Below, piece after piece: positions 1,973 to 58,254 of a stretch of 64,000 nt of DNA (positions within the stretch are counted from its first letter, which is position 1; each line of letters starts with the position of its first letter). A program made the position numbers and the translations under genes. The notes below the pieces were generated by a model that was given only the letters and a program-made list of their open reading frames with translations, was not told where the DNA came from and made no database searches. Where the stretch lies: contig NZ_CP049857.1 in the NCBI RefSeq assembly GCF_011299555.1, positions 1,240,001 through 1,304,000 of the forward strand. The letters run 5' to 3'. This stretch comes from Dysgonomonas sp. HDW5A. GTDB taxonomy: Bacteria > Bacteroidota > Bacteroidia > Bacteroidales > Dysgonomonadaceae.

Positions 1973-3087
1973 TGATAAAAAAGATAGAGGATAATCTCAA
2001 TAATTTTCTATTAAAGCCACAGTTCAGAATATACAGGCATCTGTTGTTATTACTAGTATCGATATCTATTGCCATGAATGTACTGTGGGATGTACCTGAT
2101 AAAATTATTTTAACCGACAACCGTATCTTTATAGCTGTTGCATATCTTGCAACTACTCTGGTAATGATATACTTCAACATCTATATACTGGTACCCAGGC
2201 TTTTAATTAAAAATAAATTCACCCAATACGTTCTGTCGGCCATAGGATTAGTCACATTCTCACTAATAGCGATTGTATTGATGCAGGAATTTCTGTATGA
2301 TGTGCCCGGTATTTCGAGGGAACATATTATCGAAAACCAAGTTAAGCCGAATGCACATCTGGCCGAAAATGATAAGTCGGGATCGATCGTTGCTGTTTTA
2401 ATTGGTGTTACCTCCTCCATATTCGGAACTGCACTTCTTATTGCGGGAGTATCTACGTTTATGCTCTTTAGGTATTGGACTATTAACAATCAGCGGATCA
2501 GCGATCTGCAATCGGCAACATTGCAATCGGAACTGAACTTTCTAAAGAGCCAGATAAATCCTCATTTTCTTTTCAATATGTTGAATAACGCCAATATTAT
2601 GGTGGATGAAGACCCCGAAACAGCTTCTCAAATACTGACAAAACTCGATGGAATGCTACGTTATCAAATAAATGACAGTATGAGGGACAGAGTCGATCTG
2701 GAAGAAGACATATTATTTCTGACCAGTTTTCTGGATCTGGAAAAAACCCGTCGCGATCATTTCGAATATACTGTCAGTAACGATGGAGACTTGAGTAATA
2801 TACAAGTACCACCATTATTATTTATTCCTTTTCTCGAAAATGCAATTAAGCACAATCCTGATAATAATAATTTGTCTTATGTACATCTCTATTTTGAATC
2901 ACGAAATAATCAATTGACATTTAGATGTGAAAACTCAAAGCCTGCAAATCCGATTGAACGAAAAGTAGGAGGACTAGGTTTGGCAAATATAAAGAGGCGC
3001 TTAGATCTTTTATACGGGAATAATTATTCCTTAGAATTAAACGAAACAGAAACAACCTATACGGTCAATTTACAATTTAAGGTATAA
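1972..3087 (+). CDS. LytS-family sensor histidine kinase (intact)
   Basis: This 371-residue protein is a paralogue of the preceding gene, with the same layout: an N-terminal tail, four predicted transmembrane helices (about 22-165), then a His_kinase domain. The catalytic elements are complete: QINPHFLFN with His198 as phospho-acceptor, ENAIKHN as N-box, and GGLGLANIKRRL as G-box. It should autophosphorylate and pass phosphate to the LytTR response regulator encoded 79 bp downstream (3167). The shared membrane topology with the upstream pseudokinase and the 1-base overlap suggest a tandem duplication followed by specialization. The signal sensed is unknown because no recognizable sensor domain lies outside the membrane region. 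A copy of the dispersed palindrome (3079-3110) begins inside its last codons. Confidence 0.9.
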   Translation: MIKKIEDNLNNFLLKPQFRIYRHLLLLLVSISIAMNVLWDVPDKIILTDNRIFIAVAYLATTLVMIYFNIYILVPRLLIKNKFTQYVLSAIGLVTFSLIAIVLMQEFLYDVPGISREHIIENQVKPNAHLAENDKSGSIVAVLIGVTSSIFGTALLIAGVSTFMLFRYWTINNQRISDLQSATLQSELNFLKSQINPHFLFNMLNNANIMVDEDPETASQILTKLDGMLRYQINDSMRDRVDLEEDILFLTSFLDLEKTRRDHFEYTVSNDGDLSNIQVPPLLFIPFLENAIKHNPDNNNLSYVHLYFESRNNQLTFRCENSKPANPIERKVGGLGLANIKRRLDLLYGNNYSLELNETETTYTVNLQFKV

Positions 3088-3166
3088 GATCTTTTTATTA
3101 CTTTGGCAAGAAAAAAAACAGAGATAGTAGCGACAGATACCGCATAACTATTTAACATTACTTATT

Positions 3167-3877
3167 ATGAGATGTATTATTGTTGATGACGAGCCGATAG
3201 CTCGAAAGGGTATAAAGAAGATAGTAGATCAGATTTCGGAACTGGAATTACTCGGTAGTTTTAACAGTGCTGAAGCCACCTCTATGTTTATGATGGGAAA
3301 TTCGGTCGATTTGGTTTTTCTCGATATCCAGATGCCGGGTATAAACGGAATAGAATTTGCCCGAAACATACCAAAAAATACGCTGATTATTTTCACCACT
3401 GCTTATTCTGAATATGCTTTGGATAGTTATGAAGTTGAGGCTATTGATTATCTGGTAAAACCGATAGAAGCCGATAGACTGAAAAAAGCGGTAGACAAGG
3501 CTATCTCATATCATTCGCTTTTACTATCGGAAGAAAACAAAAATGTCGGAAACGTTGAAGATGAATATATATTCGTAAAATCAGATCGCCGATATTTTAA
3601 AGTAAACCTAAAAGACATCCTTTTTATTGAAGGTTTGAAGGATTATGTTATTATCCAGTTGGCGGAACAGCGCATCATTACCCGAATGAATCTGAAAACA
3701 ATGCATGAATTGCTTCCTAAAAACACATTTCTGCGGATAAACAGATCCTATATAGTAAATACCACGCATATCGATTCGTTTGATAATAATGATATTTTCA
3801 TTCAAAAGTATGAGATTGCAATAGGCAGTTTCTACAGAGACTTATTCTTTGAAGAGTTTGTGTCTAAAAAAGGATAA
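3167..3877 (+). CDS. LytTR-family response regulator
   Basis: The 236-residue protein has an N-terminal receiver domain (acidic pair DD at residues 7-8, phospho-acceptor Asp53 in FLDIQMPG, conserved Lys in YLVKPIEA) and a C-terminal LytTR DNA-binding domain from about residue 130 (FVKSDRRYFKV, FIEGLKDYVII, FLRINRSYIVN). This is the standard AgrA/LytR-type architecture, which binds paired direct repeats upstream of target promoters. It is the last gene of the kinase-pair operon and the obvious phosphate acceptor for the intact kinase at 1972. A strong bidirectional hairpin terminator follows (3884-3928). Targets cannot be identified here. The TonB receptor just upstream is a candidate. Confidence 0.93.
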   Translation: MRCIIVDDEPIARKGIKKIVDQISELELLGSFNSAEATSMFMMGNSVDLVFLDIQMPGINGIEFARNIPKNTLIIFTTAYSEYALDSYEVEAIDYLVKPIEADRLKKAVDKAISYHSLLLSEENKNVGNVEDEYIFVKSDRRYFKVNLKDILFIEGLKDYVIIQLAEQRIITRMNLKTMHELLPKNTFLRINRSYIVNTTHIDSFDNNDIFIQKYEIAIGSFYRDLFFEEFVSKKG

Positions 3878-3883
3878 CATATT

Positions 3884-3928
3884 CAAGATACAAAACCCTC
3901 AGCTCTAATTGGGGGATTTTGTATCTTG
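3884..3928. terminator. Bidirectional intrinsic terminator between convergent genes
   Basis: CAAGATACAAAACCC pairs with GGGATTTTGTATCTTG across a short loop, with A/T-rich flanks on both sides. It sits exactly between the LytTR gene and the convergent DUF1349 gene. Confidence 0.8.
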
Positions 3929-3941
3929 TTATATTCGGAAC

Positions 3942-10627: not shown

Positions 10628-10639
10628 AGGCCTCAGACC
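10628..10639 (+). repeat. Dispersed palindrome, core only (divergent copy)
   Basis: AGGCCTCAGACC, one mismatch to the family core AGGTCTCAGACC. It lies directly after the hdrC stop codon. It lacks the T-rich tail. Confidence 0.45.
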
Positions 10640-10648
10640 GTCAAAAGG

Positions 10649-17265: not shown

Positions 17266-17297
17266 TTTTGCTCATTATATAATTTAATCTTATCTTT

Positions 17298-17338
17298 AAG
17301 CCCTAAGACCTATCTATTGCTTTGGCAAATAAAATAAC
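17298..17338 (+). repeat. Dispersed palindrome, long form
   Basis: AAGCCCTAAGACC core (degenerate left arm), then TATCTATTGCTTTGGCAAAT and a TAAC end, matching the 38-bp consensus tail closely. It lies in the 204-bp gap before the AlkD-like gene. Confidence 0.7.
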
Positions 17339-17405
17339 TAAATCCTCTGATCCTTATATAAAGTAGTATAACTTTTACATTACTTATAAATAGAGCAACA
17401 ACAGA

Positions 17406-21522: not shown

Positions 21523-21658
21523 AAAGGTCTCGGATAACAGCTTGTTTCAGAACTGGTTTTTACTTCTTTCGATTATCCTTATCTACATTCATTGGCATAA
21601 TTGCCAGGTAGAATCGGACGAAGTGAATATAATAATAAATCTCTCAACACATTCATTA

Positions 21659-23272: not shown

Positions 23273-23575
23273 ATGTTTGATAAATTTAAAGTAAAGTGGA
23301 ATATTACTTCCAATTGGCAACTAGCCATAATCCTGATTGTATTTTCAATAACCGGAAGTGCAGCCTTGGTTGTACGAAGGTTTGTATTTGAATGGATTGG
23401 CATTACCTCCGAAACATCTATGTGGCTGAAAGTTCCGCTATACATATTGGTCTTAGTTCCTGCTTATCAAATACTATTAATAATTATAGGAGCTATTTTC
23501 GGGCAATACCGGTTCTTCTATGAATTCCAGAAAAAAAGCATAGGTCGATTTTACAGAAGAAAAGAGAAAAAATAA
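23273..23575 (+). CDS. Small membrane protein (DUF6787-like)
   Basis: The 100-residue protein has two predicted transmembrane helices (about residues 18-35 and 49-75) and a basic C-terminal tail (FYEFQKKSIGRFYRRKEKK). It resembles the small Bacteroidetes family DUF6787, of unknown function, which is often found as a conserved stand-alone gene. The amphipathic start (MFDKFKVKWNI) and the positive tail suggest an inner-membrane protein with both ends in the cytoplasm. It precedes the ferrochelatase gene by 115 bp. A copy of the dispersed palindrome starts at its stop codon. The family match is from memory and only moderately certain. Confidence 0.65.
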   Translation: MFDKFKVKWNITSNWQLAIILIVFSITGSAALVVRRFVFEWIGITSETSMWLKVPLYILVLVPAYQILLIIIGAIFGQYRFFYEFQKKSIGRFYRRKEKK

Positions 23576-23598
23576 GGTTTAAGACCTATTTATTATTC
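23574..23598 (+). repeat. Dispersed palindrome, short form
   Basis: AAGGTTTAAGACCTATTTATTATTC. The left AA are the last bases of the preceding TAA stop. Arms pair as GGTT/GACC with one G-T wobble. Confidence 0.65.
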
Positions 23599-23690
23599 AT
23601 CTAGGTATAACATCTGTTGATAGTTATAGCTTTAAAATACGACATTAACACTTTCTGCAACTTAAAAATATCCCTAAAACAAAAAATATA

Positions 23691-24822: not shown

Positions 24823-26064
24823 TTAAGGCTTCATACCTAAAGCTAAGATATATCCTTTATTGATAGTACAATTGGCAAACTTCATATTTTCCAGAAGATC
24901 GGTCATAGCTTTCCTTACCACTGCCTGATCGGGTCTAACAGCACGTATTTTAGCAAAATTACTTCTATCCTGAGAGGTATAATCTACTATCAGATTCCAA
25001 TTTTCAGGAGCTTTTATAGAAACCATCCCTCTTTCGGAATCCATCTTTTTGTAAGGCCAGTAATGCCATCCGATATTGTTACGTTCCATCAAACGAGTCC
25101 AAGCCGCAATCCATTCATCTGTATTTTCTCCTGTTTCGCCCATATAGATGGGAAGATTGACACTGTCACGGAAGTTTACAAAATCCTGAATATTACTTTG
25201 TAGTGTATCACACCAATAACGATGGCAGGTATACATCATCTTATCATCGAATTTAGAATCCTTGAACACATTGAAATTTCCGTTCCATTGAGCGCCTCCC
25301 AACAGTACAATGTGATTGGGGTCTACTGTACGGATAGAGTCTACACATCTTTTGTACAAAGGCTCTAGTGAATCGTTCAGATTTGCATGTTGTCCCAGAA
25401 AATAGTGTGCAATCGGCTCATTCAAAAGGTCATAACCCAGAATAAGCGTATCATTTGCATAATGCTGAGCCACTTTTTTCCATATTTCGCAAAACTGAAC
25501 TTTACTTGCTTCGCTTTCCATTAACCAAGGGTATCCGTAACTATCGTCAATATTATCGCCTGTTTGACCTCCGGGAGCATCATGCATATCGAGTATAACA
25601 TACAAGTTTTCCTGACGACACCACTCTACTACCTGATCGATCATCTCGAATCCGTTCTGATTGGCTGTCAACCCCATGTAATCTTCATCCGTAAACATTT
25701 TGTAATGAAAAGGAATACGAAGTGAACTCATTCCGGTTTGTTTGATATACTTTATATCTTCCTGAGTGATGTAGTTTTTCTTAAACTCCTGCCAAAACCA
25801 AGCTGTGAAATCAGGTCCTACCAACTCGCAGAAAGCTTCGTTTATCAATCGGTACGAACTTACATCCTGAAAATGGAACATATACCCTTCGGGATTGAGC
25901 CAGTTACCAAGATTAGTTCCCTGTATCAGAAGTTTCTCTCCATTCGATTTTATTAAATCGGGACCTTCTACTCTAATAAATTTCGAACCATCTGTCTTCG
26001 TGACTTCCTTTGGTGAGCAACTAAGTAATACCAGAGGTAGGATTAGATACAATAACTTTTTCAT
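24823..26064 (-). CDS. GH5-family endo-beta-glucanase-like lipoprotein
   Basis: The 413-residue protein has a lipoprotein signal (LLSC, Cys16) and a cellulase-fold TIM barrel. The acid/base is Glu216 in YDLLNEP and the nucleophile Glu310 in MGETGE. Conserved LRIPFHY and ILDMHDAPGG also fit clan GH-A. It probably acts at the cell surface or in the periplasm on beta-1,3/1,4- or beta-1,6-glucan, and the subfamily cannot be fixed by eye. It is the last enzyme of the PUL but is separated from the GH3 gene by 358 bp that include a strong terminator-like hairpin. Its expression may therefore be uncoupled. A palindrome copy lies 15 bp upstream of its start. Confidence 0.87.
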   Translation of the reverse strand: MKKLLYLILPLVLLSCSPKEVTKTDGSKFIRVEGPDLIKSNGEKLLIQGTNLGNWLNPEGYMFHFQDVSSYRLINEAFCELVGPDFTAWFWQEFKKNYITQEDIKYIKQTGMSSLRIPFHYKMFTDEDYMGLTANQNGFEMIDQVVEWCRQENLYVILDMHDAPGGQTGDNIDDSYGYPWLMESEASKVQFCEIWKKVAQHYANDTLILGYDLLNEPIAHYFLGQHANLNDSLEPLYKRCVDSIRTVDPNHIVLLGGAQWNGNFNVFKDSKFDDKMMYTCHRYWCDTLQSNIQDFVNFRDSVNLPIYMGETGENTDEWIAAWTRLMERNNIGWHYWPYKKMDSERGMVSIKAPENWNLIVDYTSQDRSNFAKIRAVRPDQAVVRKAMTDLLENMKFANCTINKGYILALGMKP

Positions 26065-26078
26065 GAATATTTCTATTT

Positions 26079-26102
26079 AAGGTCACAGACCTGTTATTTA
26101 TC
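26079..26102 (+). repeat. Dispersed palindrome, short form
   Basis: AAGGTCACAGACCTGTTATTTATC: five-base arms AGGTC/GACCT around an ACA loop. It is 15 bp upstream of the GH5 start, in opposite orientation to that gene. Confidence 0.7.
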
Positions 26103-26375: not shown

Positions 26376-26400
26376 AATAAACTAAGGTCTGAGACCCTTT
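26376..26400 (-). repeat. Dispersed palindrome, short form
   Basis: On the minus strand it reads AAGGGTCTCAGACCTT and then AGTTTATTC. The arms GGTC/GACC surround TCA. It lies 22 bp after the GH3 stop codon. Confidence 0.7.
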
Positions 26401-28666: not shown

Positions 28667-28681
28667 AAAGTCTCGGACTTT
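28667..28681 (-). repeat. Dispersed palindrome, compensated variant
   Basis: AAAGTC-TCG-GACTTT, perfect 6-bp arms. Relative to AAGGTC/GACCTT both arms changed together (GG to AG, CC to CT), so pairing is kept. It overlaps the GH16 stop codon. Confidence 0.7.
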
Positions 28682-29762
28682 AATTAATGAATTTATAATT
28701 TTCCTGGGTTGAATTGCCTTTTAAGGTGAGTATATATACTCCATTTCGGGGTAAATCCGAGCAATCAATACTTGCGTTATCATCTTCAACAGACTTTGTT
28801 TTATAAAGCCTGCCTTGGATGTCTCTTATATTAAGAGTGGTAATGTTTCCATCTTTAAGATGGAGCGAAAGCGATTTATTTTCTTTATTAAAAGTAAATG
28901 GTACCTCATCACGTAGCTCTTTTTCGATGGAAGCTACCTCCTTCTTTTGATATACTCTTACGTAATCAATCTCATATTTCGAAGGGAATATATCTTCGGC
29001 AACTCCTTGTAAACCTCCCCAGTCACCTCCGATAGCCAAATTTAATTTCAGATAGAAAGGTGCATTAAAGGGCCATGTACGTTTATCTCCTAAATGATCG
29101 TTTTTAAAAGTAAAATAGGCAACACCATCCACATATCCTGTAATTTGATCTTCAGTCCATTCTAATCCATATACATGAAATTCGGTTTCTGCGTTTTTAA
29201 TATCTTTAGTTGCTGTTTTTTCCGTACCGATTTTATGATTGTACAAGTCTGTATGGATTGAAGCTTGGGTTACATCAGGACGATAACCTACATACTCCAT
29301 TATGTCAATCTCTCCATCCAGTGGCCATGCTGCAAAATTCTTAGGCATCATCCAGAATGCCGACCATGTACCTCTGCCTGCTGCTACTTTTATTCGAGCT
29401 TCGAAATACCCATACTTCCACGATTCGACAGTATTCATGCGAGCCGACACATAATCCATCCCGTAGTAGGGCTTCGGACGTTTAAATGCTGTAATAATTA
29501 AGTTACCATCTTTTATTTTTGCTACTGTATCGGTACCTGCTGTACGATCGGTATAGTATTGCAGTTCATTATTTCCCCAGCCGCTGCCTCCGGTTTCGAA
29601 CCACCATTTATCTCCCGGAAGAGGTAGTGAACCATTCGTGTTAGGAGCTTCATTAAATTCTTCCTGCCAAACAAGATCATATCCTGCCGGAGCTTGCGAT
29701 TTACAGAGTAATGTGCTGCAAAAGAAGAGTGTTATGGCTGTAAATAGATGTTTATTTATCAT
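28680..29762 (-). CDS. GH16 endo-beta-1,3-glucanase (laminarinase-like) with T9SS-like C-terminal tail
   Basis: The 360-residue enzyme has a signal peptide (1-23) and a GH16 jelly-roll domain. The catalytic motif is E151-I-D153-I-M-E156 (nucleophile, helper, acid/base), and YVSARMNTVESWKYGYFEARIK, quoted here only by its ends YVSAR and EARIK, supports GH16. The set is typical of laminarinase and mixed-linkage glucanase subfamilies. Residues about 290-360 form an extra domain (LNIRDIQGRLYKT, LPRNGVYILTLKG, ENYKFIN) that looks like a type IX secretion (Por) sorting domain. Such a tail would export it through the outer membrane. It lies between the surface-binding and GH3 genes. Confidence 0.88.
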   Translation of the reverse strand: MINKHLFTAITLFFCSTLLCKSQAPAGYDLVWQEEFNEAPNTNGSLPLPGDKWWFETGGSGWGNNELQYYTDRTAGTDTVAKIKDGNLIITAFKRPKPYYGMDYVSARMNTVESWKYGYFEARIKVAAGRGTWSAFWMMPKNFAAWPLDGEIDIMEYVGYRPDVTQASIHTDLYNHKIGTEKTATKDIKNAETEFHVYGLEWTEDQITGYVDGVAYFTFKNDHLGDKRTWPFNAPFYLKLNLAIGGDWGGLQGVAEDIFPSKYEIDYVRVYQKKEVASIEKELRDEVPFTFNKENKSLSLHLKDGNITTLNIRDIQGRLYKTKSVEDDNASIDCSDLPRNGVYILTLKGNSTQENYKFIN

Positions 29763-29778
29763 GGACTTTTGCTTTTGT

Positions 29779-29793
29779 GGTCTCAGACCTATT
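29779..29793 (+). repeat. Dispersed palindrome, short form
   Basis: GGTCTCAGACC followed by TATT. It lies 16 bp upstream of the GH16 start codon, with AT-rich sequence after it. Confidence 0.65.
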
Positions 29794-29865
29794 TATAATT
29801 CTCTCTATTAAGTATACATATAACCGATTGTTATTAGTAAATACTTTCAAGTACTTATAAAGCAA

Positions 29866-38846: not shown

Positions 38847-39063
38847 TGTTGATGAAAGAATTATTCTCTCATTATTCAGATTAGGTCTGCAACATATTTT
38901 TTGTCAATAATCATTAGACAAAGACCCTTCGAAAATCTGAATTCTATGTATTTTTTAGCGTAACATCTTTGGACTCCAATAATCATTTGATCTGATTTGT
39001 CCTGACATGTGTTGTTATGCACCTATTGTAAAATAATTGTTTTATTTAACACCCAAACTGTTT

Positions 39064-39101
39064 AAGGGCTCAGACCTTTTTATTGCTTTGGTAAGTATAA
39101 C
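39064..39101 (+). repeat. Dispersed palindrome, full 38-bp form
   Basis: AAGGGCTCAGACC followed by TTTTTATTGCTTTGGTAAG and TATAAC, nearly identical to the copy at 58217-58254 over the tail. It lies 100 bp upstream of the barrel-protein gene. Confidence 0.75.
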
Positions 39102-39201
39102 GACTATAGGTTGTAATGGTTTAGAAATAGATCATTAAACCTTCTCAAATACTTAAAGTTATCAAAGCAGTCAAAGGTGTTAGGCCTAAAACTAAAAATG
39201 T

Positions 39202-40380: not shown

Positions 40381-40432
40381 GGTATAGTTAATTAGATAAA
40401 CATAAAATAGAAACACAAACAGAAAGTATCAT

Positions 40433-40454
40433 AAGGTCTCGGACCTTTAATAAC
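40433..40454 (+). repeat. Dispersed palindrome, perfect-arm form
   Basis: AAGGTC-TCG-GACCTT, perfect 6-bp arms, then TAATAAC. It lies in the barrel-gene/proV gap, 11 bp before proV. Confidence 0.75.
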
Positions 40455-40465
40455 ATTCTTAAAAT

Positions 40466-41683
40466 ATGAGTAAGATAGAAATAAAAGATTTGTACCTGAT
40501 ATTTGGTTCTGCCAAAAGACAGGCATACAAAATGTTGAAAAGCGGTAAAAGTAAAAAAGAAATTCATTCTAAGACACGGTGTACCATTGCAGTAAAAAAT
40601 GCAAACCTCTCGATTAATGAAGGTGAAATATTTGTTATTATGGGATTGTCGGGGAGTGGAAAATCATCTCTGTTAAGGTGTTTCAATATGCTGAATATAC
40701 CCACATCTGGATCTTTGGTGATTGATGGGGAAGATATTACTAAAATGGATAAGCATGCGTTGTTAAATCTGAGAAGAAAAAAGGTTGGAATGGTTTTCCA
40801 GCATTTTGGACTACTTCCACACCGTACAATTTTAGACAATGTTGCTTTTGGATTAGAGATACAAGGGATACCTCAGGAAAAAAGACATGCAAAGGCTAAA
40901 GAGATACTCAGCATGGTTGACCTTTCGGGGTACGAAAACTCATTTCCCCACCAACTCAGTGGAGGTATGCAGCAACGTGTAGGTATTGCCCGTGCCATTG
41001 CTACTGATTCTCAAATACTATTGATGGATGAGGCGTTTAGTGCCTTAGATCCACTTATCAGGGCACAGATGCAGGATGAATTGGTAGAAATACAGCAGTC
41101 TTTGAAAAAGACGATCATATTTATTACTCACGATTTAGATGAGGCAATCAAAGTGGGTAATACGATTGCGATAATGAAGGACGGAGAAATAGTTCAACAA
41201 GGTACTCCCGAAGATATACTGCTCAATCCGGCTGACGATTACGTGAAAGCTTTTATCGGGAATGTAGATATGGCTAAAATTATAACTGCTTCGGCTATAA
41301 ACGAACCTTTCAAGGCTCGAATATGGCTGGGAAAAGATGGTCCGGCATCTGCACTCCGTTTAATGGAACGCCACTTACTGAAATTTCTCCCCGTTGTTGA
41401 CCATCTGGGACGTCTTATTGGTTATGTCGGAGAGAAAGACATCCGTAAAAAAATAGCCAACAAAGAAAATAATATTGATTCTATCGTAAACGATATACCT
41501 AAAGTTTCGATGGATACTTCCATTACAGATTTACTGCCATTATTTATCAATCAGAAATATCCATTGGCTGTAGTTGACCATAAAGACCGTCCTGTTGGCT
41601 ATATAAGACATTCGGACGTGGTATCTATGGTAACGGGTTATGATGACGATAAAGTACAGTCTATTATAGAAAGTGCCAATTAA
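40466..41683 (+). CDS. proV: Glycine betaine/proline ABC transporter ATP-binding protein with CBS domains
   Basis: The 405-residue protein has Walker A (GLSGSGKSS at about 59-67), the ABC signature LSGGMQQR (about 164), Walker B (ILLMDEAFSALDP), and a C-terminal pair of CBS domains (about 280-400; LPVVDHLGRLIGYV, LAVVDHKDRPVGYI). In OpuA-type transporters the CBS pair senses ionic strength and gates uptake. It belongs to the ProV/OpuAA family (YKMLKSGKSKKEIHSKTRC near the N-terminus is typical). It powers the permease encoded 80 bp downstream, and a palindrome copy starts at its stop codon. Confidence 0.95.
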   Translation: MSKIEIKDLYLIFGSAKRQAYKMLKSGKSKKEIHSKTRCTIAVKNANLSINEGEIFVIMGLSGSGKSSLLRCFNMLNIPTSGSLVIDGEDITKMDKHALLNLRRKKVGMVFQHFGLLPHRTILDNVAFGLEIQGIPQEKRHAKAKEILSMVDLSGYENSFPHQLSGGMQQRVGIARAIATDSQILLMDEAFSALDPLIRAQMQDELVEIQQSLKKTIIFITHDLDEAIKVGNTIAIMKDGEIVQQGTPEDILLNPADDYVKAFIGNVDMAKIITASAINEPFKARIWLGKDGPASALRLMERHLLKFLPVVDHLGRLIGYVGEKDIRKKIANKENNIDSIVNDIPKVSMDTSITDLLPLFINQKYPLAVVDHKDRPVGYIRHSDVVSMVTGYDDDKVQSIIESAN

Positions 41684-41706
41684 GGTCTCAGAGCTACTCT
41701 TTATAG
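41682..41706 (+). repeat. Dispersed palindrome, left arm conserved
   Basis: AAGGTCTCAGAGCTACTC and TTTATAG. The first A's are part of the proV TAA stop. The right arm has one mismatch (GAGC for GACC). Confidence 0.6.
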
Positions 41707-45536: not shown

Positions 45537-45577
45537 CTTTTATAATTTTATATTTAAATACTTCTATTTTGCTTCAA

Positions 45578-50624: not shown

Positions 50625-50655
50625 TATATATTCAAATATCAAATACCATTCAGCC

Positions 50656-51888: not shown

Positions 51889-51889
51889 T

Positions 51890-52408: not shown

Positions 52409-52412
52409 AATC

Positions 52413-52709
52413 ATGACAATAAAACAAATACTCAAAGACCTGGAGTCTGCAAAACGCCCTGTAGCCAAAGTATTACAAAGCGGAACAAACTTCAAAGTAA
52501 TAGCTATAGGCTTCACTAAAAATATGGTCTTGGAAGATCACAAAACCGACATCCCTGCAAAGCTGATTGTATTGGGAGGTAAAGTCGTATACAAAGAGGG
52601 AGAAAAGATGGTAATGCTGTCTCAATATGAAGAAACTCCCATTCCTGCCGGTGTTATGCACTCGGTTACAGCTTTGGAGGATAGTTTATGCCTAGTTATC
52701 AAAGGGTAA
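52413..52709 (+). CDS. Small cupin-domain protein
   Basis: The 98-residue protein is a single cupin barrel: FKVIAIGFTKNMVLEDHKTDIPAKL gives the first motif region and PAGVMHSVTALEDSLCLVI the second, with His residues (EDHKTD, PAGVMHS) positioned as metal ligands. Similar one-domain cupins follow DUF438/DUF2249 genes in other Bacteroidetes. It may be a metal-binding sensor or a small-molecule-binding protein of the NO/oxygen response. It closes the operon and is followed by a strong hairpin (52738-52771). Confidence 0.82.
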   Translation: MTIKQILKDLESAKRPVAKVLQSGTNFKVIAIGFTKNMVLEDHKTDIPAKLIVLGGKVVYKEGEKMVMLSQYEETPIPAGVMHSVTALEDSLCLVIKG

Positions 52710-52737
52710 TATCCGAATTTATTATTTTATCTATAAG

Positions 52738-52771
52738 ATGAGGTATTTAGAATAAGCCCTAAATACCTCAT
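52738..52771. terminator. Intrinsic terminator of the DUF438 operon
   Basis: ATGAGGTATTTA pairs perfectly with TAAATACCTCAT, spacer 10 bases. The following T-rich stretch is short. Confidence 0.75.
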
Positions 52772-52884
52772 TATCTATAAAACAGAATTAATTTGAAAAA
52801 AAATACTCAAATTTGTAACCAATCTCAAATTCATCTGGTCATATTCATGTAAACAAATTAATAACAACTAAAACAACCAATATT

Positions 52885-53250
52885 ATGGAATTTGTAGAAG
52901 AAGGTTTAATACCAATTATAGCAATTCTATCGGCAGTTGCTCTTCCTATCGGGTTTGGGATGTATCTCGGGCTTGTAAGTATGCGCACAAAGAACAAAGA
53001 GAATATGGAACTGATCAAACAAGGAATAGTACCTCCTCCGCAATCGAAGCCTACTCCCAACAGATACAGGTCTTTAAGAAACGGCTTCTTATGCATTGGC
53101 ATCGCCCTAGGCTTACTTATAGGTAATATCGCAGAAACATTTCTTGCCTTACAGGAAGGTTATACTATGGCGGCTTGTGTGCTTCTGTTCCTAGGACTAG
53201 CTTACGTCCTGTTTTACTTTGTTACTAAAGATAAAGACTTAGAAGAGTAA
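52885..53250 (+). CDS. DUF6249-like membrane protein
   Basis: The 121-residue inner-membrane protein has three predicted helices: one near the N-terminus (IIAILSAVALPIGFGMYLGL) and two in the C-terminal half (GFLCIGIALGLLIGN and MAACVLLFLGLAYVLFYFV). A positively charged loop joins them (KNKENMELIKQGIVPPP, PNRYRSLRNG). It fits DUF6249, a small family often encoded beside ECF sigma factors in Bacteroidetes. It is 5 bp upstream of the sigma gene and is co-transcribed with it, so it may take part in sensing or anti-sigma function (inference). Confidence 0.75.
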   Translation: MEFVEEGLIPIIAILSAVALPIGFGMYLGLVSMRTKNKENMELIKQGIVPPPQSKPTPNRYRSLRNGFLCIGIALGLLIGNIAETFLALQEGYTMAACVLLFLGLAYVLFYFVTKDKDLEE

Positions 53251-53255
53251 CACCA

Positions 53256-53813
53256 ATGGATGAAAAGCTAAAAATAAAACAGGTTTTAAAGGGGGATACG
53301 TCCGCCTTTGCCTATTTTGTGGATACTTATCAGGATATGGCAATAACCATCGCCTTTCGTATCTGCGGAAATAAGCAGGATGCCGAGGATATCGTGCAGA
53401 ATGCTTATGTAAAAGCTTTTCATAACTTGCATACATTCAGAACCGACAGCAAATTTTCGACCTGGTTTTACCGAATAGTATACAATACTGCCCTGACTCA
53501 TATAAGCAGTTCGGGATTCAGTACCGAATTTGTAGACTATCAACAGATGGATACCGAAAGTTCTTTTTCCGAATGGGATACACTCGAAAGGATTAATGAA
53601 CAGGAAAAAAAGGCTGTCATAAATGAGACTTTAGAGAAAATGCCTAAAGACGAAAGCCTGCTGCTTACATTGTATTATCTGGAAGAGAACTCGGTAAAAG
53701 ACATAGTTCTGATAACGGGCTTGGGAGAGTCGAATATTAAAGTAAAATTACATCGGGCTCGAAAACGATTTGCCGATATTATAGGAACTATGATGCATTA
53801 TGAAAAAGTTTAA
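53256..53813 (+). CDS. ECF RNA polymerase sigma factor (RpoE-like)
   Basis: The 185-residue protein has sigma region 2 (FVDTYQDMAITIAFRICGNKQDAEDIVQNAYVKAF, quoted by its ends FVDTYQ and DIVQNAYVKAF) and region 4 (MPKDESLLLTLYYLEENSVKDI, GLGESNIKVKLHRARKRF, helix-turn-helix). It differs from the FecR-linked sigma at 20971. Between it and the next gene lies a copy of the dispersed palindrome. The adjacent small genes on both sides probably encode its control proteins. The promoter set it reads is unknown. Confidence 0.93.
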   Translation: MDEKLKIKQVLKGDTSAFAYFVDTYQDMAITIAFRICGNKQDAEDIVQNAYVKAFHNLHTFRTDSKFSTWFYRIVYNTALTHISSSGFSTEFVDYQQMDTESSFSEWDTLERINEQEKKAVINETLEKMPKDESLLLTLYYLEENSVKDIVLITGLGESNIKVKLHRARKRFADIIGTMMHYEKV

Positions 53814-53836
53814 GGTCACAGACTTCTCTGCTTATA
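53812..53836 (+). repeat. Dispersed palindrome, core form
   Basis: AAGGTCACAGACTTCTCTGC and then TTAT. Arms pair with one G-T wobble. The first bases belong to the sigma-gene TAA stop. Confidence 0.65.
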
Positions 53837-53860
53837 TAAATAAATTATTACATTTATAAT

Positions 53861-54223
53861 ATGGAAAAGGATATTAAAAACAATATAGAAGATAGCCAAT
53901 TCCGAGACTTATTATCCGGAACAAGACTTGAGGCAAGCAACAATCTGAAGTTTAGAATCATGCAACAGATTGAGACGGAAAAGGCTTTATCGAAACAAAA
54001 AGCAACAAAAACCCGTTCCGGATTCGGAAATATACTATCGATACTGGGAGTTATGTACTCCTTGATAGCCGTTTTGGGTATCGGTGTATATTTTACTTAT
54101 GGATCTGAGGCTTTACGATCGCCTGCCTTATTTATGCCTATGATACTTATAACATCGGCATGCAGCGTATTTCTGCTAATCTCTACATTTGATGACAGAC
54201 GACATTACAAGCATAAGAAATAA
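53861..54223 (+). CDS. Small membrane protein, probable anti-sigma partner
   Basis: The 120-residue protein has an N-terminal cytoplasmic part (DIKNNIEDSQFRDLLSG, SNNLKFRIMQQIETEKAL, similar in style to anti-sigma N-termini that bind sigma factors) and two hydrophobic segments (about 52-72 and 84-103). I do not recognize a named family. Position 47 bp after the sigma gene and the membrane topology suggest an anti-sigma factor or a regulator of one. The end lies 6 bp from the convergent phosphodiesterase, with a shared hairpin spanning both stops. Confidence 0.65.
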   Translation: MEKDIKNNIEDSQFRDLLSGTRLEASNNLKFRIMQQIETEKALSKQKATKTRSGFGNILSILGVMYSLIAVLGIGVYFTYGSEALRSPALFMPMILITSACSVFLLISTFDDRRHYKHKK

Positions 54224-54246
54224 GAGCTTTCATTCCGAAAGCTCTA
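54223..54246. terminator. Hairpin spanning convergent gene ends
   Basis: AGAGCTTT pairs with AAAGCTCT (8 bp, short loop), overlapping the stop of the phosphodiesterase gene and the end of the sigma-linked gene. It may act as a bidirectional terminator without a U-tract. Confidence 0.5.
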
Positions 54247-54721
54247 TTACCTCTAGGTCTTTTATCGCACCCTCATCTAAAACAAACCGCAACAAGGTTC
54301 TTACTTTATGAAAGCCGTATTTTCCGGCTGCACCGGGATTTATATCCAAACAGTTATATTTCTTATCATACATTACTTTCAGTATATGCGAATGTCCGCA
54401 AATAAATAGCCTGGGCGGATCTACTTGCAAAATATTCCTCACTTTAGGATCGTAACGACCCGGATAGCCTCCTATATGAGTCATCAAAACATCTACCCCT
54501 TCTAATGTGAACCGTAGGAATTCGGGATATACAGCTCTTATATCTGCTCCATCTATATTGCCATATACTGCACGGAAAGGTTTGAATGCCTCAAATTTAA
54601 GAGTCAAATCAAACGATCCTATATCTCCTGCATGCCAAACCTCGTCACAATCGGCAAAATGGTTTTTGTATTTCTCATCCCAATAGCTATGGGTATCCGA
54701 AAGCAATCCTATTTTCTTCAT
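54230..54721 (-). CDS. YfcE/MJ0936-type metallophosphoesterase
   Basis: The 163-residue protein is a small calcineurin-like phosphoesterase. Metal-binding residues are in LLSDTHSYWD, VWHAGDIGSFD, VYGNIDG, MTHIGGYPG and FICGHSHILK, covering the usual GDxH, GNHD/E and GHxH motif series. YfcE-type enzymes hydrolyse phosphodiester model substrates, and the cell target is unknown. The gene is 3 bp downstream of the DUF4595-like gene on the same strand, so they may share a transcript. It has no signal peptide and acts in the cytoplasm. Confidence 0.9.
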   Translation of the reverse strand: MKKIGLLSDTHSYWDEKYKNHFADCDEVWHAGDIGSFDLTLKFEAFKPFRAVYGNIDGADIRAVYPEFLRFTLEGVDVLMTHIGGYPGRYDPKVRNILQVDPPRLFICGHSHILKVMYDKKYNCLDINPGAAGKYGFHKVRTLLRFVLDEGAIKDLEVIELSE

Positions 54722-54724
54722 TCT

Positions 54725-55558
54725 TTATTTAATAATTGTCTTTGCCGGAATATATTCAATAGTCATAGTAGAAGAGCTTATACCAAGCCAATCAGGCGAA
54801 GGCTTTGTTCTGATAGACACGGGATAAAGATCTTTATTATATTGGATCTCATTGTAAGTATATTCAATCCACTTATCATCGCTACTACCAGATGTATATC
54901 TCTTTATTGTGTTTTCCAATTGATACTCAGAGAAAGCTGTCTGTGTAATTAAAAACCAATGCGGAGTATTCACATCTTTAAATATTCCATTCTTACGGTC
55001 TGTAGTATATCGGTATTTATTCGTATAATCACTTTTAAAAACATATTCGATAACATTCCCTCTGTCGTCAAGCTCATAGGTAACAACCTCTTTGCTTTCG
55101 CCCACTAGTGCATACGTTAAAGTTATATTTTTTGATGAGAGCTGAATCGTAGCAAAATCTTTCCCATCTTTATTTATCTTTATTTTATCTCCGTCATAAC
55201 TATACTTCTCCACTGAGACTTTTGATATTGCACTATTTTCGGATGACGTTATATTAGCTTCAATAATTCGTCCATCAGTATCATACTTAATAACTGTATT
55301 TTTGAGGTTAACACTTTTACTTTCGGAAGTAGATGTATATGTATGAGAAATATTTGTCAACCTATTATCATCATCATAAGTGAACGCGTCTACAACTTCA
55401 ACACTAGTACCTGGAGAACTGCTACTTAAATTATAATTCAGCTTTATCTGAGACGGTAATAATTGTTTATTAGAGATACTCTCATCATCGCTACACGACA
55501 ACAATAAACATAAAAAAAGGCTCATAGAAAGGCTAAAAAGGAAATTGTTCTTTTTCAT
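54725..55558 (-). CDS. DUF4595-like lipoprotein
   Basis: The 277-residue protein has a lipoprotein signal (LFLCLLLSC, Cys23) followed by an Asp/Ser-rich stretch (SDDESI) that may direct surface export. It has repeated beta-hairpin segments such as DAFTYDDDNRLTNISH, VEKYSYDGDKIKINK and YELDDRGNVIEYVF. This YD-repeat-like pattern matches DUF4595-type Bacteroidetes lipoproteins. It is a paralogue of the gene at 56221. Function is unknown. Such proteins often sit on the cell surface. The ATG at 55558 is favored by the signal peptide. Confidence 0.75.
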   Translation of the reverse strand: MKKNNFLFSLSMSLFLCLLLSCSDDESISNKQLLPSQIKLNYNLSSSSPGTSVEVVDAFTYDDDNRLTNISHTYTSTSESKSVNLKNTVIKYDTDGRIIEANITSSENSAISKVSVEKYSYDGDKIKINKDGKDFATIQLSSKNITLTYALVGESKEVVTYELDDRGNVIEYVFKSDYTNKYRYTTDRKNGIFKDVNTPHWFLITQTAFSEYQLENTIKRYTSGSSDDKWIEYTYNEIQYNKDLYPVSIRTKPSPDWLGISSSTMTIEYIPAKTIIK

Positions 55559-55627
55559 AATAATATTATTTAATTTAGTTAATAATATTATAAGATGCCT
55601 CTTATTAACATACGCTGCATTATTCTG

Positions 55628-56122
55628 TCAATCTTTTTTATAATGATGCGACTCTTTATAAGGTACACCAAATACTTTTCCAGTAACTTTATCAACAGGT
55701 ACTTTCCATATTTTGACATTGCGAACAGCAGGTTCCGAATACTTAAAAGGTCGGTTCGAATATTGATCCATCAATATATTAAGTATCTCCACCTTTTCGT
55801 CGAAGTCTTCTATAAAGGTCACTTTTCCACGACAAACGACACTGCTTCCCTTGACTCTGTAACTACAGGCAACTTCTTCATGCTGATGCGTAATTTCGGA
55901 AGGAGTACAAAATGTTATGCATATATTCGGATTATTTTCTATTGCCCGAACGGCTGAACCTTCGGGTCCGGAGTGCAGATATACCACATCATCCTTATAT
56001 CCAAAATTCATGGGGATAACATAAGGTAAACCATCGGTATCTATCAGCCCGATGAAACACTCTTTACATTCTTTTATCGTTTTCTCAATGAATTCTCTTT
56101 CTTCAATTGTAATAGTAACCAT
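55628..56122 (-). CDS. NimA-like flavin-dependent oxidoreductase (pyridoxamine 5'-phosphate oxidase fold)
   Basis: The 164-residue protein has the split-barrel flavin-binding fold: IGLIDTDGLPYVIPMNFGYKDD, VYLHSGPEGSAVRAIENNPN (quoted in part), VACSYRVKGSSVVCRGKVTF. NimA-family members bind FMN and a few reduce nitroimidazoles. Most are of unknown substrate. There is no evidence here for resistance, only for the family. It lies between two DUF4595-like lipoprotein genes but is separated from each by 69-98 bp. A -7 box (TACATTTG on the minus strand) lies just upstream. Confidence 0.85.
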   Translation of the reverse strand: MVTITIEEREFIEKTIKECKECFIGLIDTDGLPYVIPMNFGYKDDVVYLHSGPEGSAVRAIENNPNICITFCTPSEITHQHEEVACSYRVKGSSVVCRGKVTFIEDFDEKVEILNILMDQYSNRPFKYSEPAVRNVKIWKVPVDKVTGKVFGVPYKESHHYKKD

Positions 56123-56146
56123 ATTTTTCTTGTATCTGGATTAGAT

Positions 56147-56154
56147 CAAATGTA
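56147..56154 (-). promoter_or_regulatory. Candidate -7 promoter box (TACATTTG) of the NimA-like gene
   Basis: Exact TANNTTTG match on the minus strand, 24 bp upstream of the start codon. Confidence 0.45.
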
Positions 56155-56220
56155 AAAGTACAAAAAGCACGGCTTAATAAAAAAACGTGCTTCTAAAATG
56201 AATCGTTTAAAACAACTTTC

Positions 56221-56961
56221 TTATTTTATTGTCAGATAATCGATCGTTAACAGAAATTTACTGCTTCCACTAACCTCTACACTTGTAGGATATCCCGCAT
56301 CATTGTATTTAAGCGTAAATATATCTGCAACGGAGTCGTTTACCTCCTGCAAAGTATTATTTATAAAGCACAAAGGGAATGCCTGCTCTCTTATAAAAAA
56401 CCAAGATGGTGTTTTGATATTTTTAAATAGACCATTCTTGTCATCGTAAGTTAAAGTGGTAGTATGAATTACGTTTCCATTTATATCTTTTACGGTATAC
56501 TTATCCATGTTTCCTTTCGCATCATACCCATAAGTATACACTACCTCTGCATTGTATAGTTTCAGCAGCTCGCCCTTACTGCCCAACTCCAATGTATCTC
56601 TGTAAAAACCATCTTCAGAAGGGCTTATGCAAAACACTTTATTACCATCGTAAGTGAACTTAGCAGTATCGGCTGACACAACATACGACAAACGCCCTTG
56701 CGAATCATAGTTAAATCTGATAGTATCGCCCTCTTCGGCAGTAGCTTCACCCATAGCTTGAATTATATAAGTAAGCCTGTTTTGTTTATCATACCGAAAG
56801 TACAGAGTTGCAATACCATCATAGCCCTCTTCCAACGATTTATTCACAATGACATCGGGCAGATAAACACCATCTGTTTCCTCATTTCCGTTATTATCGT
56901 CATTACAAGACACAAGAGAAAAAGATACTAAAGCAATTAGCGTTAAGAAATAAAATTTCAT
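56221..56961 (-). CDS. DUF4595-like lipoprotein
   Basis: The 246-residue protein has a lipoprotein signal (FSLVSC, Cys19) and then an acidic tail (NDDNNGNEETD) as in surface-exported lipoproteins. YD-repeat-like units follow: LYFRYDKQNRLTYIIQ, IRFNYDSQGRLSYVV, YTYGYDAKGNMDKYT, TLTYDDKNGLFKNI. It is a diverged paralogue of the gene at 54725, with the same closing segment style (PSWFFIREQAF against PHWFLITQTAF). The pair probably arose by duplication and later insertion of the NimA-like gene between them. No enzyme motif was found. The function is unknown. Confidence 0.75.
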   Translation of the reverse strand: MKFYFLTLIALVSFSLVSCNDDNNGNEETDGVYLPDVIVNKSLEEGYDGIATLYFRYDKQNRLTYIIQAMGEATAEEGDTIRFNYDSQGRLSYVVSADTAKFTYDGNKVFCISPSEDGFYRDTLELGSKGELLKLYNAEVVYTYGYDAKGNMDKYTVKDINGNVIHTTTLTYDDKNGLFKNIKTPSWFFIREQAFPLCFINNTLQEVNDSVADIFTLKYNDAGYPTSVEVSGSSKFLLTIDYLTIK

Positions 56962-57004
56962 AGGATTAATTTTTTGTTTTGTACATGTTTGTTAAGAATA
57001 CATA

Positions 57005-57012
57005 CAAAGATA
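57005..57012 (-). promoter_or_regulatory. Candidate -7 promoter box (TATCTTTG) of the DUF4595-like gene
   Basis: Exact TANNTTTG match on the minus strand, 43 bp upstream of the start codon. Confidence 0.45.
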
Positions 57013-57096
57013 TTATTTCATACGTATTTTTATAAATAAATAGATCCTCTATTTCTTTATTTAGAACATTCGAACTTATTATTCGAGCCAATATTT

Positions 57097-57104
57097 TATC
57101 TTTG
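57097..57104 (+). promoter_or_regulatory. -7 promoter box (TATCTTTG) of the M20 deacylase gene
   Basis: Exact TANNTTTG match only 8 bp before the start ATG, so the transcript should have almost no 5' leader. Confidence 0.55.
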
Positions 57105-57112
57105 TTTTTGTT

Positions 57113-58180
57113 ATGGAAAAAGATATTGACGAATTATTTTATGATGCAATAGATCTGTTGAAAAACATGATCCGCATTCCTTCATATAGCAGGCAGGAAA
57201 ATGAAGTAGCCGATATGATAGAATCATATATCCGAAAAGCAGGCTTTACCCCTCAACGAAAAGGCAATAATATATGGATTAAATCGCTCGGTTTTACGGA
57301 TGCAAAACCCACCATATTATTAAATTCACATATCGATACGGTAAAACCGGTTTCGGGATGGACTAAAGACCCTTTTGAGCCGATTGAAGAAGATGGTTGC
57401 TTGTACGGATTAGGTAGCAACGATGCAGGAGCAAGTTTAGTCAGTCTGATGTATACTTTTTTTCTTGTGACTCAGAAGCCACAAGATTATAACCTTATAT
57501 TTCTGGCTTCTTGTGAAGAAGAGGTTTCAGGTAAAGACGGAATCGAATCTGCTTTAAAGGATATACCCACGCCAAACTTTGCGATAGTAGGCGAACCCAC
57601 AGAAATGCATCCTGCCATAGCCGAGAAAGGCTTAATGGTGTTAGATTGTGTTGCGACAGGAGAATCGGGGCATGCTGCCCGTAACGAAGGGGTAAACGCC
57701 ATCTATAAAGCGATGAAAGACATAGAATGGTTCCGCACTTTCGAATTTCCAAATGTGAGCGATCTTCTGGGTCCGGTAAAAATGACCGTTACAATGGTAA
57801 ATGCAGGAACTCAGCACAATGTAGTACCCGATAAGTGTTCGTTTGTTGTAGATGTACGCAGCAACGAGTGTTACAGCAATGAGCAGTTATTTGAAATTAT
57901 AAATAAACATACCGAATGTGAGGTTACACCCCGTTCATACCGCCTTAATTCATCAAAAATTGCGATTGAAAATCCTTTCGTACAACGTGCAATAGTTCTA
58001 GGCAGAGAACCTTATGGATCACCCACGTTATCGGATCAGGCACTCATGCCGTTTCCTTCGGTAAAGATGGGTCCCGGAAATTCGACTCGTTCACATACTG
58101 CGGATGAGTATATAAAACCCGATGAAATAAGGGAAGCAATAGAATACTACTACAAGTTATTGAATGGTTTGAGCATCTAA
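57113..58180 (+). CDS. argE: M20-family deacylase (ArgE-like)
   Basis: The 355-residue zinc hydrolase has M20 features: SHIDTVKPVSGWTKDPFEP (metal ligand His), LYGLGSNDAGAS (bridging Asp), CEEEVSGKDG (catalytic Glu and ligand), GEPTEMHPAIAEKG, and a final GPGNSTRSHTADEYI with the last ligand His. In Bacteroidetes this clade acts in arginine biosynthesis and removes the acetyl or succinyl group from citrulline or ornithine, and the exact substrate cannot be fixed. It is monocistronic, with a -7 box close to the start and a good terminator at its end. Confidence 0.88.
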   Translation: MEKDIDELFYDAIDLLKNMIRIPSYSRQENEVADMIESYIRKAGFTPQRKGNNIWIKSLGFTDAKPTILLNSHIDTVKPVSGWTKDPFEPIEEDGCLYGLGSNDAGASLVSLMYTFFLVTQKPQDYNLIFLASCEEEVSGKDGIESALKDIPTPNFAIVGEPTEMHPAIAEKGLMVLDCVATGESGHAARNEGVNAIYKAMKDIEWFRTFEFPNVSDLLGPVKMTVTMVNAGTQHNVVPDKCSFVVDVRSNECYSNEQLFEIINKHTECEVTPRSYRLNSSKIAIENPFVQRAIVLGREPYGSPTLSDQALMPFPSVKMGPGNSTRSHTADEYIKPDEIREAIEYYYKLLNGLSI

Positions 58181-58198
58181 TGTCTCAAACCTTTTTTT
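58166..58198 (+). terminator. Intrinsic terminator of the M20 gene
   Basis: GGTTTGAG (58166-58173) pairs with CTCAAACC (58184-58191), loop 10 bases, then a run of seven T's. It overlaps the stop codon. Its right arm is shared with the palindrome copy at 58179. Confidence 0.85.
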
Positions 58199-58212
58199 AT
58201 TACTTTCGGAAA
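58179..58212 (+). repeat. Dispersed palindrome, first copy of a tandem pair
   Basis: AATGTCTCAAACC, then TTTTTTTATTACTTTCGGAAAT. Its start is exactly 38 bp before the next copy. Confidence 0.6.
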
Positions 58213-58216
58213 TATT

Positions 58217-58254
58217 AAGGTCACAGACCTTTTTATTGCTTTGACAAGTATAAC
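58217..58254 (+). repeat. Dispersed palindrome, full 38-bp form, second copy of a tandem pair
   Basis: AAGGTCACAGACC, then TTTTTATTGCTTTGACAAG and TATAAC. It is the best copy together with 39064-39101. Confidence 0.8.

What the first reader, a model, noticed from the sequence alone, without database searches (positions are those of the whole stretch)
3079..58254. Undescribed family of about 14 short dispersed palindromes
Seen: the core AAGGTC-NNN-GACCTT (loops TCA, TCG, ACA, TGA, TAA) recurs at 3079, 10628, 17298, 23574, 26079, 26376, 28667, 29779, 39064, 40433, 41682, 53812, 58179 and 58217, with a half copy at 21524. Long copies continue as TTTTTATTGCTTTGGCAAG and TATAAC, about 38 bp. One copy (28667) changed both arms together, so pairing is conserved, and others keep pairing by wobble. 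They lie only between genes and many begin inside or right after a stop codon. The genes around them are unrelated. Inference: either an RNA hairpin (weak terminator, processing or stability element), a short mobile repeat, or an operator placed before a TTGCTTTG promoter-like box. I know of no named family that matches.
Basis: partly seen in the sequence, partly recalled or inferred. Interest (0 to 1): 0.78.

Follow-up and report, generated by a model that had tools for sequence, protein, structure and literature searches.

The report
Small mobile repeats capping bacterial genes
The short palindromes are one end of a roughly 100-base mobile DNA repeat that has spread between genes in some gut-type bacteria by inserting at the two letters TA, which helps explain why many copies start exactly on a gene's stop signal.

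Summary
The palindromes are real: 11 in the window against 1.9 expected, and 310 in the 4.30-Mb genome against 4 for the reversed pattern. They are not free-standing 38-bp hairpins. They are the left end of a dispersed element of about 96-104 bp, TA[AGGTC-NNN-GACC-T5-ATTGCTTTGG...TACT]TA, with about 150 or more copies in this Dysgonomonas genome (capped). Of 34 elements, 20 (16 loci) could be compared across three species. At 11 loci the element is absent from another genome, at a twelfth by reading. Where the ends are intact, empty sites show one TA and filled sites two. It is therefore a mobile, MITE-like element. Both termini begin with A, so TA+A rebuilds a TAA stop in either orientation. 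The hairpin end on a same-strand stop is still about 12-fold enriched (18 of 73), so selection for, or tolerance of, a terminator-like hairpin behind genes remains possible. A related element fills a Bacteroidales MAG (1,269 cores). There, a broken IS630 transposase gene abuts an end matching a sister small family, suggesting an IS630/Tc1-type mobiliser. No mobiliser was found in Dysgonomonas. This is a new family of a known kind.

The parts
3076..3169 (+). full-length element; its left end supplies the last codons and stop of gene 1972..3087
   Evidence: nhmmer E 9.5e-11, model positions 2-101; distance -10
17296..17390 (+). full-length element between two + genes; the D. alginatilytica flanks lie 19 nt apart (element absent)
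   Evidence: E 6.3e-12
23572..23668 (+). full-length element, left end exactly on the TAA stop of ORF 23273..23575
   Evidence: E 9.5e-13; distance -3
39062..39159 (+). full-length element upstream of gene 39202
   Evidence: E 4.9e-21
58215..58311 (+). full-length element between convergent genes; its right end lies beside the stop of the - strand gene 58313..60295; not seen at this junction in G001 or G005
   Evidence: E 7.8e-21
58177..58214 (+). older left-end relic on the stop of gene 57113..58180, directly before the full copy; similar relic sequence in G001 and G005 by reading
29776..29862 (+). degenerate element
   Evidence: E 0.0067
41681..41696 (+). left-end relic on the stop of gene 40466..41683; G001 has a full element with a nested REP here, G005 a relic
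53811..53826 (+). left-end relic on the stop of gene 53256..53813; also short in G001 and G005
40432..40447 (.). perfect hairpin copy without the rest of the element; also short in G005
26078..26093 (.). left-end relic 14 nt from the start of the - strand gene 24823..26064
26383..26398 (-). left-end relic, minus orientation by reading
28667..28682 (-). left-end relic on the stop of the - strand gene 28680..29762 (AAAGTC/GACTTT)
10628..10640 (.). degenerate hairpin copy (3 mismatches)
21524..21534 (.). half copy (AAGGTCTCGGA)

Best explanation
Each palindrome is the left end of a non-coding mobile element of about 96-104 bp, a MITE-like repeat. It was spread by a transposase acting in trans that targets TA and leaves a TA at each end (shown by filled and empty sites; equivalent to TA target-site duplication). 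The unit is A-GGTC-NNN-GACC-T5-ATTGCTTTGG...variable middle...TACT. Since both termini begin with A (AGG.. and, on the other strand, AGTA..), insertion at any TA rebuilds TAA. An insertion into a TAA or TAG stop is therefore harmless, and copies survive on stop codons and in spacers. Copies then decay by point change and internal deletion, often leaving only the recognisable hairpin. The mobiliser is inferred, not shown, to be an IS630/Tc1-type DDE transposase (about 0.6). In transcripts, the sense hairpin plus U-run probably acts as a weak terminator or 3'-end structure (inferred).
For: Of 34 elements in own, D. alginatilytica (G001) and G005 stretches, 20 at 16 loci had both flanks matched elsewhere; 13 of the 20, at 11 loci, have flanks <= 20 nt apart in at least one other genome, and one more locus is empty by reading. 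Letter-clear cases: own CACAACA-TA[AGGTC..TACT]TA-TGCAAG against ACACAAGA-TA-TGAAAG in both sisters; alg TTTTTTTA-TA[..]TA-ATATAAG against g5 TTTTTTTA-TA-ATATAAG; alg ATTAG-TA[..]TA-GTTATTAT against g5 ATTAG-TA-GTTATTAT. In the MAG G076 the left flank is T 95%, A 95%, A 97% in 37 left-right pairs, 25 of them exactly 102 nt; the right-end TA there was part of the search pattern. An IS630 relic in G076 has a tip that a sister small family matches at 87.5% over 32 nt. Ten of 11 IS630 tips at seven loci, picked out by inverted repeat or by eye, begin TAAGTA, like the right end here.
Against: No IS630 (DDE_3) gene at E <= 0.001 in the own genome or four congeners, and no relative of the G076 transposase at E <= 1e-8 in any of six Dysgonomonas. 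Beyond TAAGTA, the own right-end consensus does not resemble the IS630 tips (p 0.12-0.98 for 10, 0.016 for one). The ungapped 32-nt match to the IS630 tip is to the sister family; the hairpin family scores 56 against a control 95% point of 46 and one control outlier of 132. No left-to-right interval enclosing a transposase was noticed in 1.02 Mb. The ends are not clear inverted repeats. TA targeting alone does not predict the 12-fold excess of the left end on stop codons. Hairpin pairing exceeds shuffles, which selection on an RNA would also give.
Confidence: 0.82

Rival explanations
1. A functional RNA element, such as an intrinsic terminator or 3'-end stability hairpin, placed at gene ends by selection and conserved for that role.
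For: Hairpin of -5.5 kcal/mol followed by TTTTTATT. Left end on a same-strand stop in 18 of 73 (own) and 13 of 124 (G076 type), while the right end on an opposite-strand stop is only 2 of 124. Pairing above shuffles: 2 of 2,000 reach it, 1 of 500. Some hairpins persist as short relics in two or three species (40433, 53812).
Against: Presence/absence between sister species at 11 of 16 compared loci. Similar sense and antisense placement between co-directional genes: 32 against 25 and 41 against 30. The conserved unit continues for about 85 bp beyond the hairpin. Pairs with changes on both sides do not exceed shuffles (7 against 6.9). In 39,001-58,999 the terminator-like scan finds 14 against 13.0 in shuffles and, of the copies there, calls only 58217.
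Confidence: 0.1
2. A REP/REPIN-like repeat moved by a single-stranded-DNA HUH (Y1) transposase (TnpA_REP, or the IS200-like subclass 1.2).
For: Hairpin at one end and no clear inverted repeats. A Y1 gene exists in own, G001, G003 and G059 (one each) and G076 (four). A TA target with a right end terminating in TA cannot be told from a TA duplication by empty sites alone. In the own genome, orientation follows the arms that I inferred from GC skew of sampled stretches (47:26 against 33:44; Fisher 0.003-0.009 for splits at 1.4-1.8 Mb).
Against: No GTAG or CGTC tag at the hairpin foot. No Y1 gene at E <= 0.001 in G004 or G005, which have 515 and 285 cores. The G076 Y1 has no relative at E <= 0.001 in six Dysgonomonas. 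The own Y1 gene carries the separate GTAGGGGC repeat. No strand bias in G076-type DNA (148:142, and none significant at higher skew cut-offs).
Confidence: 0.12
3. A DNA operator or chromosome-organisation site bound by a dimeric protein, with a promoter-like box next to it.
For: Palindrome with three free central bases; hundreds of copies, mostly intergenic in the sample.
Against: A subfamily with GTTC/GAAC arms; insertion polymorphism; about 100-bp unit; stop-codon registration.
Confidence: 0.03

Closest known systems
RUP of Streptococcus pneumoniae (107 bp, IS630-Spn1)
   Same: About 100 bp, non-coding, A+T-rich, about 100 intergenic copies, TA target, small mobile repeat (PMC2229807, PMC3049150; passages seen by term search)
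   Different: RUP has 9-bp terminal inverted repeats matching a resident IS630. Here the two ends differ, one is a GGTC/GACC hairpin, and no IS630 was found in the Dysgonomonas genomes searched.
ERIC / Correia (NEMIS) / CIR elements
   Same: Same class: TA at termini, <200 bp, folded transcripts, intergenic; CIR also lacks terminal inverted repeats in the table of PMC2229807 (passages seen)
   Different: Different sequence, different phylum, no clear terminal inverted repeat, left-end hairpin with T-run.
GTAG and CGTC REP families (TnpA_REP)
   Same: High-copy intergenic palindromes; GTAG REPs often supply the TAG stop of flanking ORFs (PMC3733652, passages seen), as this element supplies TAA
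   Different: No GTAG or CGTC tag; about 100-bp unit flanked by TA. In the same genomes, GTAGGGG repeats form a separate family that inserts inside this element.
IS630/Tc1-mariner family
   Same: TA at both ends (family trait recalled, and stated for RUP in PMC2229807); right tip TAAGTA shared with Bacteroidales IS630 tips
   Different: Encodes no transposase; a clear match beyond the tip was found only for the sister small family of G076.

Membership tests
bacterial MITE-like small mobile repeat | <200 bp, no coding capacity, high copy, dispersed | tested here: met
   about 96-104 bp; 150 listed copies, 142 reaching model position 93
bacterial MITE-like small mobile repeat | TA at the termini and target-site duplication shown by empty sites | tested here: met
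   (left flank); a TA duplication cannot be told from a TA target plus a TA-ending right end
bacterial MITE-like small mobile repeat | terminal inverted repeats | tested here: not met
   only TAAG is shared by both ends (by reading); PMC2229807 lists accepted families without them
IS630-derived MITE | ends matching a resident IS630 transposon | tested here: inconclusive
   G076: partial, best for the sister family; Dysgonomonas: none found and no significant match beyond TAAGTA for 10 of 11 tips
IS630-derived MITE | mobilisation by an IS630 transposase | not testable with these tools
   needs a transposition assay
REP / TnpA_REP | GT[AG]G (or CGTC) tag at the hairpin foot | tested here: not met
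   foot is TAA in nearly all copies read
REP / TnpA_REP | TnpA_REP gene in the genome | tested here: inconclusive
   Y1_Tnp found in own, G001, G003, G059 and G076; not in G004, G005 or G039
intrinsic terminator | G+C-rich hairpin then U-run | tested here: met
   consensus copy -5.5 kcal/mol plus TTTTTATT; met by consensus-like copies only (39064: -2.8)
intrinsic terminator | transcripts end there | not testable with these tools
   no RNA data
Rfam families | score above a gathering threshold | tested here: not met
   0 matches in the window

The most novel reading that the evidence does not exclude
An asymmetric TA-inserting mobile repeat whose left inverted repeat has been replaced by a portable transcription terminator. 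Its termini rebuild the stop codon and its hairpin then ends the transcript, so insertion just behind genes is neutral or useful. This would let it rise to hundreds of copies and reshape 3' ends genome-wide in several Bacteroidales lineages.
Probability: 0.25. Interest if true: 0.62.

Novelty: new member of a known kind. Interest (0 to 1): 0.42.

Why it matters
It accounts for some 300 mostly intergenic hairpins in this Dysgonomonas genome and similar numbers in relatives, and removes a tempting reading of them as a conserved regulatory RNA. It adds to Bacteroidales a high-copy TA-inserting small element of the RUP/ERIC class, with presence/absence differences between species usable as markers (inference). 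Its orientation-biased excess on stop codons makes a concrete question testable: whether a mobile repeat succeeds by carrying a terminator. I found no description of it in the searches made, which cover open-licence papers only.

Tried and rejected
Conserved structured RNA: RNAalifold on 33 full copies gave only a 5-pair hairpin at -0.72 kcal/mol. The hand-named three-helix structure gave mixed results. Above shuffles: paired cells 76.2% against 74.0% (1 of 500 reach it), cells changed on both sides 16 against 9.5 (10 of 500), covariation score 0.141 against 0.117 (11 of 500). Not above: pairs with changes on both sides 7 against 6.9 (283 of 500), further pair types 22 against 20 (111 of 500). 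The copies are related, which the tool warns inflates such scores, and subfamilies explain much of it, so I do not take this as proof of RNA function.

IS200-like Y1 transposase of G076 as mobiliser: relatives in 48 of 101 genomes but none of six Dysgonomonas. TnpA_REP as mobiliser: no Y1 hit in G004, G005 or G039.

Autonomous copy (left end...ORF...right end): in 140 loci (1.02 Mb), 19 left-to-right intervals of 160-6,000 nt were looked at; judged only by the start of their longest ORF, none looked like a transposase. That set is mostly G076-type but includes a few loci of G059, G003, G001 and two Dysgonomonas loci (L211, L222). L211 and L222 (about 15 kb) are also in the sets. Some G076 DNA is held twice there (as G076 and as JAOZVK); elements were de-duplicated by sequence, the background was not.

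Similarity of the Dysgonomonas right end to IS630 tips: not significant for 10 of 11. Of 24 distinct hits that reach the IS630 tip, none has the hairpin by my pattern, though L217 by reading has a hairpin-type left end with one mismatch.

Element on plasmids or phages: no match. Strand bias as a sign of single-stranded transposition: modest in own, absent in G076 type, left open.
Full report
WHAT WAS CHECKED. The window is positions 1,240,001-1,304,000 of a single 4,298,355-bp contig. A congener, G001, shares the contig length 173,689 with D. alginatilytica DSM 100214 NZ_QICL01000007.1, so the genome is taken to be an unnamed Dysgonomonas. AAGGTCNNNGACCTT with up to 2 mismatches occurs 11 times in the window, against a shuffled mean of 1.87. 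With up to 1 mismatch it occurs 310 times in the genome, against 4 for the reversed pattern. Among 101 genomes (own plus 100 relatives), counts are high in congeners (598, 515, 285, 95; only 2 in the 62%-complete G002). Outside the genus, five exceed 30: G059 84, G039 67, G051 43, G019 36, and G076, of another family, 1,269. Small counts cannot be read as presence: the control column reaches 55.

ANATOMY. Aligning copies by the hairpin showed that conservation continues for about 100 bp. Consensus by reading: TTAAGGTCTCAGACCTTTTTATTGCTTTGGcAAGTATAACAAC-TATA-A-T-GTTAT...AAAATATA-CATTAAATATTTT---TTACTTAA. In 564 kb of the own genome, 81 stretches match the model at E <= 0.01; 73 contain the left end and 41 are full by a 93-column criterion. 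A whole-genome search returned 152 matches; only 150 candidates are scored, so this is a lower bound. Of the 150 listed, 142 reach model position 93 or beyond. The window holds five full copies (3076, 17296, 23572, 39062, 58215), one degenerate copy, and several left-end relics. Sixteen other genomes searched with the same model at E <= 1e-4: 150-152 (capped) in G001, G004 and G005, 84 in G003, 97, 92, 28 and 29 in G059, G039, G051 and G019, 23, 11 and 2 in G042, G023 and G018, and none in five (G014, G025, G084, G096, G066).

MOBILITY. In own, D. alginatilytica and G005 stretches, 34 elements span more than 80 model columns; 20 of them, at 16 loci, had both flanks matched in at least one other genome. 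Thirteen of the 20, at 11 loci, have flanks at most 20 nt apart in another genome; a twelfth locus (alg 36069) is empty by reading. The other four are occupied, hold relics, or (own 118216, the window's 58215 copy) have a 30-nt gap holding a relic. Where the ends are intact, the filled site reads TA-[AGG...TACT]-TA and the empty site a single TA. Examples: own 34220 (minus) against both sisters, alg 58824 against G005, alg 26843 against G005, alg 151921 (minus) against own, alg 36069 against G005 and own. In others the right end has mutated (own 20767, G005 15863, alg 112760) and the fit is approximate. At the window's 58179/58217 pair, the outer hairpin is an older relic also seen in the sisters and the full copy is absent from them. 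In the spacer 41683-41764, G001 has a full copy with a GTAG repeat nested in it, while G005 and own keep only shortened relics. So copies are gained and decay.

STOP CODONS. The element begins with A at both termini, so TA + A gives TAA whichever way it lies. In one pair, a stop/start overlap TAATG was split by the insertion with both signals kept (own 20767 minus against both sisters, by reading). Against random intergenic TA sites, the left end lies on a same-strand stop in 18 of 73 copies where 2.1% is expected, and in 13 of 124 G076-type copies where 0.9% is expected. The right end lies on an opposite-strand stop in 2 of 124 and, within a loosely defined range, in 7 of 41 in own. The orientation excess is therefore clear in G076-type DNA and weak in own, and TA targeting alone does not explain it. 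Sense against antisense between co-directional genes is 32:25 (own) and 41:30 (G076 type). One of the 124 lies inside an ORF. Genes were called by simple ORF rules, not by a gene finder.

A RELATIVE WITH MORE UNIFORM COPIES. G076 shares contig lengths (25,957; 26,738; 32,516) with Bacteroidales bacterium GMC9.metabat2.98 (JAOZVK). The MAG element is TAAGGTCTTCGACCTATTTATAGTTGCTTACGCATT...ACTTTTGTAACAGTACTTA. One search found 37 left-right pairs in 292 kb, some sharing a right end, 25 of exactly 102 nt; by reading they form several subfamilies that share both ends but not the middle. The common left-end pattern and right tip make shared ancestry with the Dysgonomonas element likely (inference). 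A second small family there begins TAAGTAATTAACAATG, shares GCTTACGC and has a right end that matches the tip of a broken IS630 gene at up to 87.5% over 32 nt. One copy (L217) joins a hairpin-type left end to that type of right half (by reading). For the hairpin family itself the match is gapped and weaker: score 56 against a control 95% point of 46, with one control outlier of 132. IS630 genes in other relatives have tips beginning TAAGTA (10 of 11 tips at seven loci). This is the reason to prefer an IS630/Tc1-type mobiliser. Against it: no IS630 found in the own genome and the congeners searched, and no significant tip similarity beyond TAAGTA for the Dysgonomonas consensus in 10 of 11 comparisons.

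STRUCTURE. The consensus hairpin folds at -5.5 kcal/mol before a T-run, the 39064 copy only at -2.8. On 48 copies spanning to model column 80 or beyond, 78.5% of hairpin cells pair (2 of 2,000 shuffles reach this); double changes number 11 (9 of 2,000 shuffles reach this), and 9 of them are the GTTC/GAAC subfamily. Weak termination by sense copies is plausible and untested.

LITERATURE. Passages of PMC2229807 and PMC3049150 (RUP, ERIC, Correia, CIR), PMC3733652 (GTAG and CGTC REPs; GTAG REPs often supply TAG stops) and PMC6006769 (Y1 subclasses) were seen by term search, not read whole. A full-text search for four versions of the core found seven papers, unrelated by title. No paper in the held library combines IS630, miniature inverted-repeat and Bacteroidetes. 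Subscription papers are not held, so an earlier description cannot be excluded.

VERDICT. A real family of small mobile repeats for which I found no description, of a known kind (TA-flanked MITE-like elements), with unusual asymmetric ends and an unexplained preference for stop codons.

Noticed in passing
L031 15069, L033 15585, L043 3261, L008 1497; G001 spacer orthologous to window 41683-41764: A second repeat family, GTAGGGG...CCCCTAC (GTAG REP type), sits directly behind or inside copies of this element.
   Followed up: partly
L080 1258-1797 (own genome near 418.6 kb); also L103: A Y1 (TnpA_REP-like) gene carries GTAGGGGC and its inverted copy inside its reading frame (own); PMC6006769 lists subclass 2.4 (Cyanobacteria, Bacteroidetes and others) with REPs inserted in tnpA_REP.
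   Followed up: partly
G076-type loci, e.g. L184 near 3593-3624, L111 near 3154-3185: A second small family, TAAGTAATTAACAATGAATAATGGACAATTAACAATTTTGCTTACGC...CCTACTTA, shares the middle motif and a similar right end but has no left hairpin; L217 looks like a hybrid.
   Followed up: partly
G076-type sample, copies with left-to-right lengths 91, 120 and 149: The left end is tandemly repeated in 29-nt units (TAAGGTCTTCGACCTATTTTATAGTTGCT).
   Followed up: no
G096: Seven exact AAGGTCGTAGACCTT / AAGGTCTACGACCTT sites but no match to the full-element model; may be another family.
   Followed up: no
own genome, 150 listed copies: Element strand follows the GC-skew arms modestly (47:26 against 33:44); unexplained.
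   Followed up: partly
L108 (G076 contig C266): Broken IS630-family transposase gene in at least two frames; its other end is cut by the contig end.
   Followed up: partly
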